Under the pieces are notes generated by a model that worked only from the letters and a program-made list of their open reading frames with translations, was not told the origin of the DNA and searched no databases. Positions 55,386 through 62,622 of a stretch of 64,000 bases of DNA are shown in pieces. The position numbers and the translations under genes were made by a program. The stretch is taken from the NCBI RefSeq assembly GCF_033807715.1, contig NC_084592.1, positions 25,698,001 through 25,762,000 on the forward strand, written 5' to 3'. The stretch is from Cololabis saira. Taxonomy: Eukaryota > Chordata > Actinopteri > Beloniformes > Belonidae. The number at the start of each line of letters is the position of its first letter. Position 1 is the first letter of the stretch.

Positions 55386-55508
55386 ATGGGGCTGCTGGAT
55401 AAGCTGTCAGGCTGGCTCGGCCTGAAGAAGAAAGAAGTCAACGTTTTGTGTCTGGGACTGGACAACAGCGGCAAAACCACCATCATCAACCAACTCAAGC
55501 CGCCTAAT
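55386..55508 (+). CDS. arl6: arl6 exon 1: start and P-loop
   Basis: 41 codons from ATG to the donor AAT|GTAAGT (phase 0). It encodes [20 protein letters not shown] then [21 protein letters not shown]. The amphipathic N-terminal segment ([11 protein letters not shown]) inserts into membrane when GTP is bound. GLDNSGKT (residues 24-31) is the G1 phosphate-binding loop, with Lys30 and Thr31 at the magnesium/phosphate site. ARL6/BBS3 in its GTP form recruits the BBSome coat to membranes for ciliary cargo transport. The start gives the same N-terminus and length as human ARL6. Confidence 0.97.
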
Positions 55509-55873
55509 GTAAGTGCGTGACACTGAGCTTCCACAGATAGGTATTTTGGAAACCTTCCTGCAAATCTTGTGGAACTGAGGCGCTTATAGTCCCAGTCCGG
55601 ACATGCAGGTCCACAGGCTCTTTCACAGATCATTTCTAACGCCATTACAATATGTGTTGGGATGCATATTGTAAGGAGGCCTGTCCACATCTTTATTTCA
55701 CTGCAATCATTCGTTTTCAGCATCCAAATCATTTAGGTCCATTGTCAGAAGAATGGAAACATGTTAGTCAGGTAAAGCCCATATCATACTTTTTCCCGCC
55801 ATTATTTCTTTGTTGACATACTCTCGCCATTACTTGTGTGTTTTTGTGTGTTTGTGTGTGATGGTGCATGCAG

Positions 55874-55935
55874 ACACAGGCACAAGAGATCGTCCCCACC
55901 ATCGGCTTCAACATTGAAAAGTTCAAGAGTTCGAG
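55874..55935 (+). CDS. arl6: arl6 exon 2: switch I
   Basis: 62 nt with acceptor GCATGCAG and donor CGAG|GTAGAA. It encodes TQAQEIVPTIGFNIEKFKSS. PTIGFNIE contains the switch I threonine (Thr50) that coordinates magnesium. It ends after two bases of a Ser codon. Residues 42-61 by the predicted numbering. Confidence 0.95.
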
Positions 55936-56036
55936 GTAGAACGCATGAGACATTTAAGTTTTTTAATGCCAAATTCAAAATAATGAATCCATTAGACTAT
56001 TACTAAACTGTCTTTCCTGTTTCTCTCTGCATGCAG

Positions 56037-56105
56037 CCTGTCGTTTACAGTCTTTGACATGTCCGGCCAGAGCAGATACAGGAGCTTATGGGAGCATTAT
56101 TACAA
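56037..56105 (+). CDS. arl6: arl6 exon 3: switch II
   Basis: 69 nt with acceptor CATGCAG and donor ACAA|GTACGA. It encodes [20 protein letters not shown] followed by HYY. DMSGQ is the ARL6 form of the G3 motif, with the catalytic-position Gln73. Residue 74 is Ser, where the human protein as I recall it has Gly ([10 protein letters not shown]). The exon ends two bases into Lys80. Confidence 0.95.
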
Positions 56106-56194
56106 GTACGAAGCACAGGCTTCAACGACCTGTTTCTACGTCAAAATGTATCGTCACTCTGCCAATTCTGATGTATCCTCTTGATTTTCTGTAG

Positions 56195-56289
56195 GGAGAG
56201 CCATGCTATCATATTTGTCATCGACAGCAGCGACAAACTGAGAATGGTAGTTGCCAAGGAGGAGCTGGATACGTTTCTTAACCATGAAG
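56195..56289 (+). CDS. arl6: arl6 exon 4
   Basis: 95 nt with acceptor TTCTGTAG and donor GAAG|GTGCAA. It encodes [20 protein letters not shown] then [18 protein letters not shown] is the conserved beta-strand/loop and [11 protein letters not shown] is the ARL6 alpha-3 helix. ESHA replaces the EGQA that I recall from human, next to the switch II change. Confidence 0.95.
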
Positions 56290-56369
56290 GTGCAAACAAA
56301 ACCCAGCAATGCATTCTCAGGCTGATTTAAAAAAAAAGATCTTGTCCTGACGTTGATCTACTTGTCTAG

Positions 56370-56499
56370 ATATCCGAAGCAAAAACATACCAGTATTGTT
56401 CTTCGCCAACAAGACGGACCTGCGGGACGCCATGTCATCGGTGAAGGTGTCACAGATGTTGTGTTTGGAGAACATCAAAGACAAACCCTGGCACATCTG
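56370..56499 (+). CDS. arl6: arl6 exon 5: guanine specificity motif
   Basis: 130 nt with acceptor TTGTCTAG and donor TCTG|GTAAAG. It encodes [20 protein letters not shown] and continues through [23 protein letters not shown] (usual ARL6: NKMD) is the G4 motif that recognises guanine. It ends two bases into a Cys codon. The following 1.9-kb intron contains a Tc1 transposon. Confidence 0.96.
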
Positions 56500-56603
56500 G
56501 TAAAGTATCTGTTATCCTGGTTTCACTTGCACTTAGAGGCAACAGCTACAGTATAGTGTTACAGGTCCAGAAGAAAAAGCAATGAACATGCATCCAACCC
56601 TTA

Positions 56604-58155
<1,552 letters not shown>

Positions 58156-58396
58156 TATTTCCTCAGTCTGTGTTTCCTATTTTCCACAATTCAAAGGTTA
58201 AACATTACAGAGACAAACAGCAACTTGCAGTTACTCAACAGCCTAGCTCTTCGCGTGCATGTGTGTTTTCCTTCTTGTTTACTCATTAGACAGCTGGAAG
58301 GATTAAGGGCTATACAGCTTTAAACAGGTCGGAAAAGTCATGAGAAAGTGACTCCGTGTCACCGCCTGCTCACCTGCTGGACATCTTGTTTTTCAG

Positions 58397-58452
58397 TGCC
58401 AGCAATGCCATCAAAGGAGAGGGCCTGCAGGAAGGGCTGGACTGGCTACAAG
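58397..58452 (+). CDS. arl6: arl6 exon 6
   Basis: 56 nt with acceptor TTTTTCAG and donor CAAG|GTAACA. It completes Cys160 and encodes ASNAIKGEGLQEGLDWLQ. CASNAIKG is the Arf-family G5 (SAK-like) motif region, and GLQEGLDWLQ is the C-terminal helix. It ends one base into an Asp codon that either the microexon or the terminal exon can complete (both begin AT). Confidence 0.96.
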
Positions 58453-58561
58453 GTAACACCTGTTAAGTACATTACAGATAATTAACATAAATGGCAAAAA
58501 CAAAACATTTACAGAGATGCTGATCGTCAGTGTGTCTTGGTTTCTTTTGTCACACCCATAG

Positions 58562-58574
58562 ATCAAATTGCACA
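58562..58574 (+). CDS. arl6: arl6 13-nt alternative microexon
   Basis: The 13 bases ATCAAATTGCACA lie between a good acceptor (TTTTGTCACACCCATAG) and a consensus donor, GTAAGT. Included, they give WLQ-DQIA and shift the terminal exon by one base into a second open frame, ending at 62184 (195 residues in total). Skipped, exon 6 joins the terminal exon directly (186 residues). If the intron were retained the protein would stop at once (DQIAQ, TAA). The conserved-looking DQI matches the usual ARL6 sequence after WLQ. A vision-associated long isoform, BBS3L, has been described for vertebrate BBS3; this exon has the right position and effect. Confidence 0.7.
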
Positions 58575-58661
58575 GTAAGTATCATGGTGCTCAGTTGTGT
58601 GAACACGTGACGTGATTGTGTTGGTAGAAGTGATGTCACTATTGGTCTGGGTGGGACTTAA

Positions 58662-58981
58662 AGGTAGAGTAAGCGATTTTCAGATGATGCGATGTTTGTT
58701 ATTTGAAAGAAATAAGAAAACGTGCTCCACCACGAGCAGGAACCCTTTTCCTGTTGGCAGTTGGCCGGAGCAAAGATTATTATGGTATGGAGTACAGACG
58801 GCCCTTCGTTTGCTTCTAGTTTACAGAGCCAGAGCTGTGTGTGAAGATTTTTTTTTGTTTTTCTTGTTTTTTTTTTTACAGTGTATGTAGAAGATGGCCA
58901 GCTAGAAAATGTTGAGGACATATTCACTGAAAGAATTAGTGTTCTGGATTAGAAAATCATGTAGAATCGCTAACCCTAACT
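58662..58981. mobile_element. TTAA-flanked MITE in arl6 intron
   Basis: The ends AGGTAGAGTAAGCGATTTT (58662) and GAATCGCTAACCCTAACT (to 58981) are imperfect inverted repeats of about 20 bp. TTAA lies on both sides (58658-58661 and 58982-58985). The interior has a 90-codon open frame without recognisable features. It starts 88 bp downstream of the microexon, inside its downstream intron. Confidence 0.7.
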
Positions 58982-59265
58982 TTAAATAATGGGAGGGCAA
59001 ATCCATGTCAAATGATGGATATTATTTGGAAAAATCTGATGAAACTGGCTTCGGCAAATTTGTTGGTACCTTTAACTTAATATGTTGTACAATCTTTTGA
59101 GGCAGTCATGGTAATCAAGTGATTTCTGTAACTCTAAGTACTTTAGTTCTCATGAGCAAACTGCTTCAGCTGTCTGGAGTTTGAAGGGTTTCTTCTCCAG
59201 ACTGCATGTTTCTTCCACCGAATCAATAGGATTTAGATCAGGGTTCATAAAAGGAAACTTCAGCA

Positions 59266-59894
59266 TAGGGCTGGGCGATATATCGAGATTTTAATATATA
59301 TCGATATATTTTCAAACGCGATATGGTATGAGACAATATCGTTTATATCGATTTAAAAAAAAAAAAATTTTTTTTTTTTTTTTTTACATTTTTTTTATGA
59401 TTTTGATATAGCTTATTTTGTGACAAATTGACTTGAATGTTTTATTTGAGATTTGCACAAATGTTTTGTTATTTGCACAACTGTCAACCTCAGTGGAAAG
59501 GTCTGCCTGTTACTGTCTACATTGTATTAATTGCACAGTGTATTTTAATTTAATTGTTATGCAGGAAAGAGATATGTTTTATTTTATTCAAGAAGCATTT
59601 TTATTCTATATATGCAGGCAGTTTATTTTTATTTCATTTGTTTTATACATTTTGATATTGTGCAGACCTCTGTTAATAAAGGTACCTGTGTGACATTTGG
59701 CACGAGGCTTTGTATTAAAACTGACTGTTTTATTAAGGGTTTGCCTCAGGAAAAAAATAAGAGATGCTATGCTATAATGCTTTGGGGGAAACCCCAATTA
59801 AGGCACAGAAAAAAATATCGAGATATATATCGAGTATCGCCATTCAGCTAGAAAATATCGAGATATGACTTTTGGTCCATATCGCCCAGCCCTA
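59266..59894. mobile_element. hAT MITE with TAGGGCTGGGCGATAT ends
   Basis: A 629-bp element with perfect inverted ends, TAGGGCTGGGCGATAT and ATATGGCCC-type complement (right end ATCGCCCAGCCCTA). It has a perfect 8-bp duplication, CTTCAGCA, at 59258-59265 and 59895-59902. Subterminal ATATCGA repeats are typical of the family. There is no coding capacity. It lies in the large intron before the arl6 terminal exon. Confidence 0.9.
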
Positions 59895-60289
59895 CTTCAG
59901 CATAGTCCAATGTTTTGTTCTTAGCCATTCTTCGTTGTTTTTCTCCCGGGGCCTGCAACTGAGACCGAGCTTTCTGACACTGGGCTGGACTGTTGTCTCC
60001 TGAATTGAGTCTTGAGAAGTCATCGGACCTGCACAGATTTAAGTATCAGATGCAGCAAAGCAGCCAGAAAATAACCATGTTTCACGTCTTTGTTTCCAGT
60101 CTCCTAGAAGCTTTGTGGTCTGTCAAAATGCATTTGGACAAATTCCAGTCTCACTTTTTATGATTTTCTCTCAAAAGTGGATTCCTCCTCAGTAAATCCA
60201 CTTTGGCTCAAACCGTGATGGATTGTTTGATCTGACACTGATGTTCCTCGACATCAGAGTTCACCTTGAATCTTTGGAAGTTGTTCAAT

Positions 60290-60600
60290 CAAATCAAATC
60301 AATCTTTATTTGTATAGCGCTTTTCATGCAAATAAAAATCCAACACAAAGCGCTTTACATAAAACATAAAACTTAATAATGCCCCCCCCCCCCAAAGCAA
60401 GACATGCTAAAACCAGCATAAGAACAACGTAAAACCATAAGACCATAAAACCTGGGTTAAAACAACAAGAACAGCTAGTTAAAACAAGGGTATACAAGAA
60501 AGACTAATATGAATCAGCTAAAAGCCAATTTAAAAAGGTGAGTCTTGAGCCTGCTTTTAAAAACATCAATAGTCTCTGCGGCCCTTCTGGGATCTTCGGT
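60290..60600. mobile_element. Fish retroposon fragment (TTTATTTGTATAGCGC type)
   Basis: AATCAAATCAAATCAATCTT, TTTATTTGTATAGCGCTTTT, AAAGCGCTTTACATAAAAC, then AAGGTGAGTCTTGAGCCTGC and TTTTAAAAACATCAATAG are standard phrases of a dispersed fish repeat. A C-run interrupts it at 60384-60394. The same family as the relic at 33010-33950. Confidence 0.65.
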
Positions 60601-61087
60601 TACCATTTCTCTTACCCATCTCTTCAATTGTGTCATCAGTTTTCCTCTTACTCAAGAGCTACAGTCCAGTGGATCCAAAACTCCTGAATGAAATTTAGCG
60701 CTGTTGTCTCAGGAACATAAAGCTGCTTGGAGATGGTCTTTTATATCCTTGTCTTGGATTTTGTTTCTGGTCTCCATAACTCTCCTTTGCTTTCTCTGGT
60801 CCGTGTCCAGTGTGGTTAACACTGTATCCTCCAACATTAGTGACGACTTGTTACCCTTTAATTAGTCCGACTGAGGGTTGACACCCGTGTTAATTACAGG
60901 ACACACTTTAATTTCACGTCACTATGGTCAAATTATTTTCTTTAAGGGTACGGATTTGTCCTGGTCAGGTTCATTAGTTGTTTTGTTTTAAATGATTCTG
61001 TTGAACCACAATTCAAAAGCAATGTTTTATTTTCATTAGTTGATTTTCAGTAAACTATTATTCATTATAACATAGGTCAGTTTCAAG

Positions 61088-61906
61088 TAGGGTTGCAAAG
61101 GGGTGGAAAATTTCCGTTAAATTTCCGGAAACTTTCCGGAAACTTTCCATGGGAAGTTAAGCTGGGGAATTTTGGAAATATTCCAAATTGGAAACTTTCC
61201 ATGGGAATTATGGGAATTTATGGGAATTAACTGGAAATTGGGGGTAATTTTAACAAACTGTATCATATCCAAACATAAATGTAAATATTTATTTTGTCAT
61301 AAGCAGATATCCATGCAAGATAATACAAAAACATGACATTTCAACAGATTTATTTGAGTAGAACTTTAGTTTTTATTCTTGTATGAACAATTATTTTAAT
61401 GAACAACAAAAACATGAATGTATTTATTTAATATTTGCAAGTTAAACATTAATACCATTATAGATCAAATATATTTACCCCGTAATATTATCAAAACTTA
61501 CTTGACTTTATATAGTCCGTGGGCTCAAATGTGTGGCTTCAATAGTCTTGTGCTTTGAGCTCAAATGTGTGGCCTCCAGGCTTCAAGAAATCACCTGTGC
61601 ATGTGATGGAGGAATGCGCAGTGCATGTAGGGGGTGTGGCCTCAATAGCCCTGCAGTAAGAAATGTGCTGTGTGCATGTGATTGAGGAGTGTACTTGCAT
61701 TAAATCTGGTTGTTTTAGCCAAGACTATGCTACAATATATTTCCCCCAACTATATTTAAGTTCCCTGTTAAGGGCCAACCTTCAATTCTGTAAATTTCTT
61801 ATTTATTCCCGTTAATTCCCATATATTCCCGTTAATTCCCATATATTCCCGTTAATTCCCATGGAAAGTTTCCAACTTTGAAAATTCCCGGAATTTTGCA
61901 ACCCTA
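61088..61906. mobile_element. hAT MITE with TAGGGTTGCAAA ends
   Basis: An 819-bp element with inverted ends TAGGGTTGCAAA and TTTTGCAACCCTA, flanked by a perfect 8-bp duplication, GTTTCAAG, at 61080-61087 and 61907-61914. It has internal short repeats of GGAAACTTTCCATGGGAA near the left end and CGTTAATTCCCATATATTCC (three copies) near the right. Each end is also a multiple-hairpin region, so single strands would fold strongly. No transposase. It ends 238 bp before the arl6 terminal exon. Confidence 0.9.
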
Positions 61907-62144
61907 GTTTCAAGTTATTTCAGTACTTCCTTTCTTTAATTTGTGGATACCAGCAGATATGTCCATGTGTACGTGTATATCCTTACCCTTCCCTACTAAT
62001 AATAAACCGTTTATGAAGGCTTCTATGTTACGCTGCATATTGTGGCGTTTTCTCTCCTGTCCTTGTGTTGACTGCATGTCGTTTCCAGCTAAACAATCCC
62101 CTACCACAGATCACACACAAAAAGATCTTCTCTTCTTCTTCTAG

Positions 62145-62170
62145 ATCATATCAAAACGATGAACAAATGA
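62145..62170 (+). CDS. arl6: arl6 terminal exon, read in either of two frames
   Basis: The acceptor is preceded by a strong pyrimidine tract (TCTTCTCTTCTTCTTCTAG). Joined directly to exon 6 it encodes DHIKTMNK and TGA at 62168-62170, giving 186 residues, the human ARL6 length, with a C-terminus like the human DQIQTVKT. Joined through the 13-nt microexon it is read one base differently: QSYQNDEQMNNHS and TGA at 62182-62184, giving 195 residues. Both frames are open to stops only 14 bases apart. Confidence 0.85.
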
Positions 62171-62622
62171 ACAATCATTCCTGATCATGGAGAGATGGAT
62201 CAAAGAACTGGAACTTTCACTGCTCAAAGTTTTCATCAAACTGGATGTTGTAGGCCTTAAACTTCACTGTAAAACAGCTAAGTAGTTCCTTCCTGTTCTA
62301 CACCTTCAAACCCCTATTTAGCTTTTCTTTTTTTTTTTTTTAAAAGGAGTAGCGCAATTTAAATATGACAAATGGGTAAATTGTTTAACACGCCTCCCGA
62401 TAGATCCCTGTCTTAGATTAATATAAACATATAATGTGAAAGCCATCTGAACTGAATGCAGACACAAAATGTATTTACTTTTTTCTGTATACACTAATAT
62501 TGATTTTTTTTTAATCTGTTGCTTTTTTCTTTTTTAATTCAACGACACACGTTTTAATAATTTCATCCACTGCACAATTTTGAAAATGCTGTTAATGTCA
62601 AATGTTGCACTAAGTGGAGATA

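What the first reader, a model, noticed from the sequence alone, without database searches (positions are those of the whole stretch)
58397..62184. arl6 13-nt microexon switches the terminal exon between two open frames
Exon 6 ends one base into a codon. Both the 13-nt exon (58562-58574) and the terminal exon (62145) begin AT, so either makes Asp. Skipping gives ...WLQDHIKTMNK (186 residues, as human). Inclusion gives ...WLQDQIAQSYQNDEQMNNHS (195 residues), with stops at 62170 and 62184. A single terminal exon thus encodes two unrelated C-termini, with the choice made by a microexon that has consensus splice sites. A long BBS3L isoform important for vision is known in vertebrates; here the mechanism is directly legible. 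Which form is retina-specific in this fish is inference.
Basis: partly seen in the sequence, partly recalled or inferred. Interest (0 to 1): 0.75.

Follow-up and report, generated by a model that had tools for sequence, protein, structure and literature searches.

The report
Known vision-isoform microexon of arl6
This is the fish copy of a well-described 13-base exon that, when spliced in, gives the cilium protein ARL6/BBS3 a different tail used in the eye; it is correctly spotted but already known in zebrafish, mouse and human.

Summary
The window carries an arl6 gene with six shared coding exons (55386-58452), a 13-nt exon at 58562-58574 and a terminal exon from 62145. Skipping gives 186 residues (stop ends 62170); inclusion gives 195 residues in a second frame (stop ends 62184). 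No other candidate exon of 3-27 nt in the 3.7-kb intron scores as high. The long tail occurs in 62 of 172 fetched ARL6 proteins: teleosts, two birds, a turtle, a gibbon and unnamed records. But this is the published BBS3L isoform. Pretorius et al. 2010 describe the 13-bp exon, the frame shift, conserved C-termini in human, mouse and zebrafish, eye-limited expression in zebrafish, and loss-of-function phenotypes; Li et al. 2015 restate the 13-nt frameshift. One detail does not generalise: both exons starting AT, so both giving Asp, is local; 48 of 62 long tails start this piece with Glu, 11 with Asp. So: a new species record of a known mechanism, without RNA evidence in this fish. One mild extra: a second teleost arl6 lineage may keep the long tail too. 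Low interest.

The parts
55386..55508 (+). arl6 coding exon 1 (ATG at 55386)
55874..55935 (+). arl6 coding exon 2
56037..56105 (+). arl6 coding exon 3
56195..56289 (+). arl6 coding exon 4
56370..56499 (+). arl6 coding exon 5
58397..58452 (+). arl6 coding exon 6, ends in phase 1 (last base G)
58562..58574 (+). 13-nt alternative microexon (equivalent of the BBS3L exon, exon 8 of mouse)
   Evidence: tail homology
62145..62170 (+). terminal exon, part read in both frames; short form ends HIKTMNK, stop at 62168-62170
62171..62184 (+). terminal exon, part coding only in the long form, stop at 62182-62184

Best explanation
The interval is the 3' part of a teleost arl6 (BBS3) gene with the vertebrate-conserved 13-nt BBS3L microexon. 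Shown from sequence: skipping joins exon 6 (phase 1) to the terminal exon and gives the 186-residue BBS3 form; inclusion adds 13 nt, shifts the frame by one and makes the same terminal exon code for a longer tail, giving the 195-residue BBS3L form. Inferred from zebrafish and mouse work: the included form is made mainly in the retina, under retinal splicing regulators (Musashi, perhaps SRRM3), and serves photoreceptor function, while the skipped form is the general ciliary form.
For: Exact exon structure and both open frames. Splice sites stand out from the intron background. 62 of 172 fetched ARL6 proteins carry the long tail. In the window and in 9 of 9 species pairs that I chose (others available were not tested), one DNA string can encode both tails in the two frames. 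Closest solved structures are ARL6 (6vbv, 2h57); Pfam Arf. Literature: 13-bp exon, frame shift, conserved tail, eye-limited, vision phenotype; 13-nt Arl6 microexon frameshift; retinal inclusion in mouse, reduced in the Msi1/Msi2 double knockout.
Against: No RNA evidence from this fish was available. Most named database isoforms are automatic predictions (X-numbered names), so their use in retina is not shown. The 200 nt downstream of the microexon hold 2 TAG triplets, not a Musashi-type cluster, and the nearest upstream TGC lies about 44 nt before the exon. Two texts on retinal splicing factors do not name Arl6 at all.
Confidence: 0.96

Rival explanations
1. The 13-nt exon is a chance match to splice consensus in the intron and is never used; only the 186-residue form exists in this fish.
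For: Short strings between AG and GT occur by chance: 11 AG-N13-GT arrangements in this intron. No RNA data here.
Against: It is by far the best-scoring of the 11, lies where the known exon lies, and codes the tail found in annotated isoforms of many fish.
Confidence: 0.02
2. The microexon is spliced in this fish but is not a retina-specific isoform: a variant of wider use, or one of little consequence.
For: In mouse the exon is described as retinal but not photoreceptor specific, included in all retinal cells; the mouse Bbs3L-null phenotype is mild and variable. No clear Musashi cluster or near TGC element in this window.
Against: Zebrafish bbs3L is limited to the eye among the tissues tested and is needed for the vision response; BBS3L but not BBS3 RNA rescues. 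The tail is conserved as protein.
Confidence: 0.1

Closest known systems
BBS3L, long isoform of ARL6/BBS3 (human, mouse, zebrafish; Pretorius et al. 2010, PMC2841623: abstract, passages and the Discussion section read)
   Same: 13-nt exon before the terminal exon, frame shift, different and conserved C-terminus, one terminal exon read in two frames.
   Different: Species only. The tail here is two residues longer than in most of the fetched long tails (49 of 63 pattern matches have the shorter length; 5 have this one: Fundulus, Cyprinodon, Ataeniobius, Anableps, Oryzias), and the microexon begins AT (Asp) where most have Glu.
Photoreceptor/retinal alternative exons promoted by Musashi proteins (PMC4991804, PMC7948980, PMC9509328; passages read)
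   Same: Mouse Arl6 exon was tested there and its inclusion falls in the Msi1/Msi2 double knockout retina.
   Different: No cluster of three TAG motifs within 200 nt downstream in this window; regulation here is untested. PMC9509328 does not name Arl6.
SRRM3/4-dependent retinal microexons (PMC10987577, passages read; Ciampi et al. 2022 not held)
   Same: Short alternative exon in a cilium gene used in retina.
   Different: ARL6 is not named in the one review text searched, and the nearest upstream TGC is about 44 nt from the exon.

Membership tests
ARL6/BBS3 (Arf-like GTPase) | Arf domain and closest match to ARL6 over other Arf family members | tested here: met
   Pfam Arf 192 bits; best solved structures are ARL6, 342 and 319 bits, against about 156 for the best ARF1; most of the 120 listed homologues are named ARL6
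BBS3L isoform | 13-nt alternative exon between the last shared coding exon and the terminal exon | tested here: met
   58562-58574; published size 13 bp
BBS3L isoform | Inclusion shifts the frame and yields a different, longer C-terminus | tested here: met
   186 versus 195 aa
BBS3L isoform | Long C-terminus conserved between species | tested here: met
   62 of 172 fetched proteins match a long-tail pattern of fixed spacing (63 less P0046, an evident read-through)
BBS3L isoform | Expression limited to or enriched in eye | not testable with these tools
   no RNA data; zebrafish RT-PCR and human EST results from the paper only
BBS3L isoform | Needed for visual function | not testable with these tools
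   zebrafish knockdown and mouse null in the paper
[quoted passage not shown]
   2 TAG in the first 200 nt, about 40 nt apart; further downstream not examined

The most novel reading that the evidence does not exclude
Teleosts carry two arl6 lineages, and the two-frame terminal exon with its 13-nt switch has been kept in both since their split, so the dual-frame tail was not divided between the copies.
Probability: 0.4. Interest if true: 0.3.

Novelty: already known. Interest (0 to 1): 0.12.

Why it matters
It indicates from raw sequence that the BBS3L switch is intact in this fish, and that the exon's place, size and both frames can be read without RNA. The biology was established in 2010. 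The remaining use is comparative: the overlap is a compact case of a short sequence read in two frames across vertebrates.

Tried and rejected
Cis-elements within 200 nt on either side of the microexon (TAG, TGC, TGCATG, GCATG, TCAT, CTCTCT, YCAY): no Musashi cluster, no TGC close to the acceptor, no GCATG. YCAY (the NOVA-type motif named) occurs 12 and 6 nt before the exon and was not followed. The regulator in this fish was left open. Structure prediction of a long form (Fundulus homologue P0005 with 24 homologues) gave mean pLDDT 41.8, too poor to use; it is no evidence about the tail. Own-genome search did not complete, so whether the locus is unique in its genome was not tested. Two papers were not held. 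The first translation used a start one base late and was redone. Test of synonymous constraint: at the third base of the Thr codon in the overlap, 35 of 41 distinct tails that a loose pattern called fish-like show Asn in the long frame, which implies ACA. At least one of the 41 is a mammal-type tail, relatedness was not corrected and no codon baseline was made, so this is only suggestive; the window itself has ACG.

Full report
Observation. The window holds a complete arl6 coding region on the + strand. Six shared exons (55386-55508, 55874-55935, 56037-56105, 56195-56289, 56370-56499, 58397-58452) sum to 535 nt and end in phase 1. A 13-nt exon, 58562-58574, follows after 109 nt of intron, preceded by CATAG and followed by GTAAGTATC. 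The terminal exon starts at 62145. Skipping gives 186 residues ending WLQDHIKTMNK, with the stop codon ending at 62170; inclusion gives 195 residues ending WLQDQIAQSYQNDEQMNNHS, with the stop ending at 62184. The coordinates and lengths in the finding are correct.

Chance. With rough splice-site matrices recalled from memory, the microexon scores 8.6 bits (acceptor) and 7.2 bits (donor). It is the best of 11 AG-N13-GT arrangements in its intron (sum 15.9; next best 9.6), and no other candidate exon of 3-27 nt in that intron reaches its sum. In the whole window 1 of 239 13-nt arrangements on the + strand (itself) and 1 of 192 on the - strand reach it. The matrices score some ordinary sites of the same gene low (exon 2 acceptor 1.3), so they are a guide only.

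Identity. The short form matches Pfam Arf (192 bits). The long form's best solved-structure matches are ARL6 (6vbv, 2h57). The first protein search listed 120 of 682 hits, most of them named ARL6 and mostly fish; the best was 94% identical over 99% of the query. A second search, from a bird long isoform, listed 120 of 464 hits and brought the fetched set to 172 proteins.

Conservation of the long tail. A pattern with fixed spacing matched 63 of 172 proteins; one (P0046) is plainly intron read-through, leaving 62. They include many teleosts, two birds and a turtle (DQITQSD...), a gibbon (EKTIQSDPDCEDMK, followed by other sequence) and an unnamed mammal-like record (EKTVQSDPSCEDVKR). A stricter sorting gave 59 long, 71 short and 42 other; at least two of the 71 (P0072, P0160) look like read-through, and among the 42 are further long-frame endings, partial and read-through models. 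Absence of a long isoform in a database is not evidence of absence, since isoforms are listed only where predicted.

A detail that does not generalise. The finding stresses that both alternative exons begin AT and so both give Asp. Among the 62 long tails the first residue of this piece is Glu in 48, Asp in 11, Gly in 2 and Ala in 1 (less P0046). In mouse, the targeting oligonucleotide printed in PMC2841623 suggests, by inference, an exon that reads Glu-Lys-Thr-Val-Gln after the shared G, which agrees with the mammal-like record. Asp in both forms is thus a local feature.

Two frames in one exon. For the window and for 9 of 9 species pairs that I chose from those with both forms among the fetched proteins (five of the nine are salmonids; at least one further pair, Oncorhynchus gorbuscha, was left out), one DNA string can encode both tails in the two frames. 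Of all synonymous versions of the short tail, one third (window, Cyprinodon, Fundulus) to two thirds (Labrus, salmonids) leave the second frame open over the overlap, so openness alone is weak evidence; conservation of the residues is the stronger point.

Known already. Pretorius et al. 2010 (PMC2841623; abstract, passages and Discussion read) describe BBS3L: a 13-base-pair exon, a shift of the reading frame, a strikingly conserved C-terminus in human, mouse and zebrafish, zebrafish expression limited to the eye among the tissues tested, impaired vision and green opsin mislocalisation on knockdown, rescue by BBS3L but not BBS3 RNA, and a mouse null with mild, variable disruption of photoreceptor architecture. 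Li et al. 2015 (PMC4317164; passage read) cite the 13-nt Arl6 microexon and its frameshift. Murphy et al. 2016 (PMC4991804; passages) and a 2020 mouse study (PMC7948980; passages) place the exon among retinal alternative exons; [quoted passage not shown] Two other texts on retinal splicing (PMC9509328; PMC10987577; passages) do not name Arl6.

Regulation here. Within 200 nt downstream there are two TAG motifs, about 40 nt apart, and the nearest upstream TGC is about 44 nt before the exon. The controlling factor in this fish cannot be told from the sequence.

Second arl6 lineage. In a rough tree of the shared part (36 of the 172 fetched proteins, chosen by me, plus the window) the window falls in a clade (support 1.0) with Fundulus, Pundamilia, Oryzias, Takifugu rubripes, salmonids, one Esox protein and others. 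Proteins from Parambassis, Nothobranchius, Gasterosteus, Takifugu flavidus, Hippocampus and others fall outside it; Hippocampus comes has proteins in both parts, and a second Esox protein falls just outside with weak support (0.70). One outside protein (P0080, Takifugu flavidus) has the long-type tail DQMTQSNQNNQNMRS. This suggests two teleost arl6 lineages with the switch kept in both, but it rests on a small tree with weak inner support and one long tail. One paper search (arl6, teleost, paralog, BBSome) listed one paper, on a ciliate, which I did not open; that does not show the point is unpublished.

Verdict. Correct observation, correct reading, established biology. Low interest as a discovery.

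Noticed in passing
56602-58157: A Tc1-type DNA transposon lies in arl6 intron 5: inverted arms of 24-50 nt, outer ends TACAGTGGGG... / ...CCCCCCTGTA, with pieces of a Tc1-like transposase readable on the - strand in several broken frames. The Tc1 label is from memory, not from a search.
   Followed up: partly
61085-61909 and about 59268-59892: Between the microexon and the terminal exon lies an element with imperfect inverted ends, and another whose ends read GGGCTGGGCGATATATCGA / TATCGCCCAGCCC (seen by eye only). The long distance to the terminal exon is partly repeat insertion.
   Followed up: partly
P0080, P0129, P0144, P0150, P0167 and others (fetched proteins): A second teleost arl6 lineage, several members with short tails such as DQIKTMRT, outside the clade of the window's gene; one member (P0080) carries a long-type tail.
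   Followed up: partly
P0050, P0051, P0109 (Synchiropus, Neosynchiropus): Predicted proteins that read from exon 6 through further sequence into ...TIEQIAQSCQNND, i.e. an apparent extended 5' end of the microexon; may be an alternative acceptor or a model error.
   Followed up: no
literature (PMC4991804): Murphy et al. 2016 give the mouse exon as 14 nt (and as exon 6 in a legend, exon 8 in the Discussion) where Pretorius et al. 2010 and Li et al. 2015 give 13 nt; 13 fits the frame shift.
   Followed up: no
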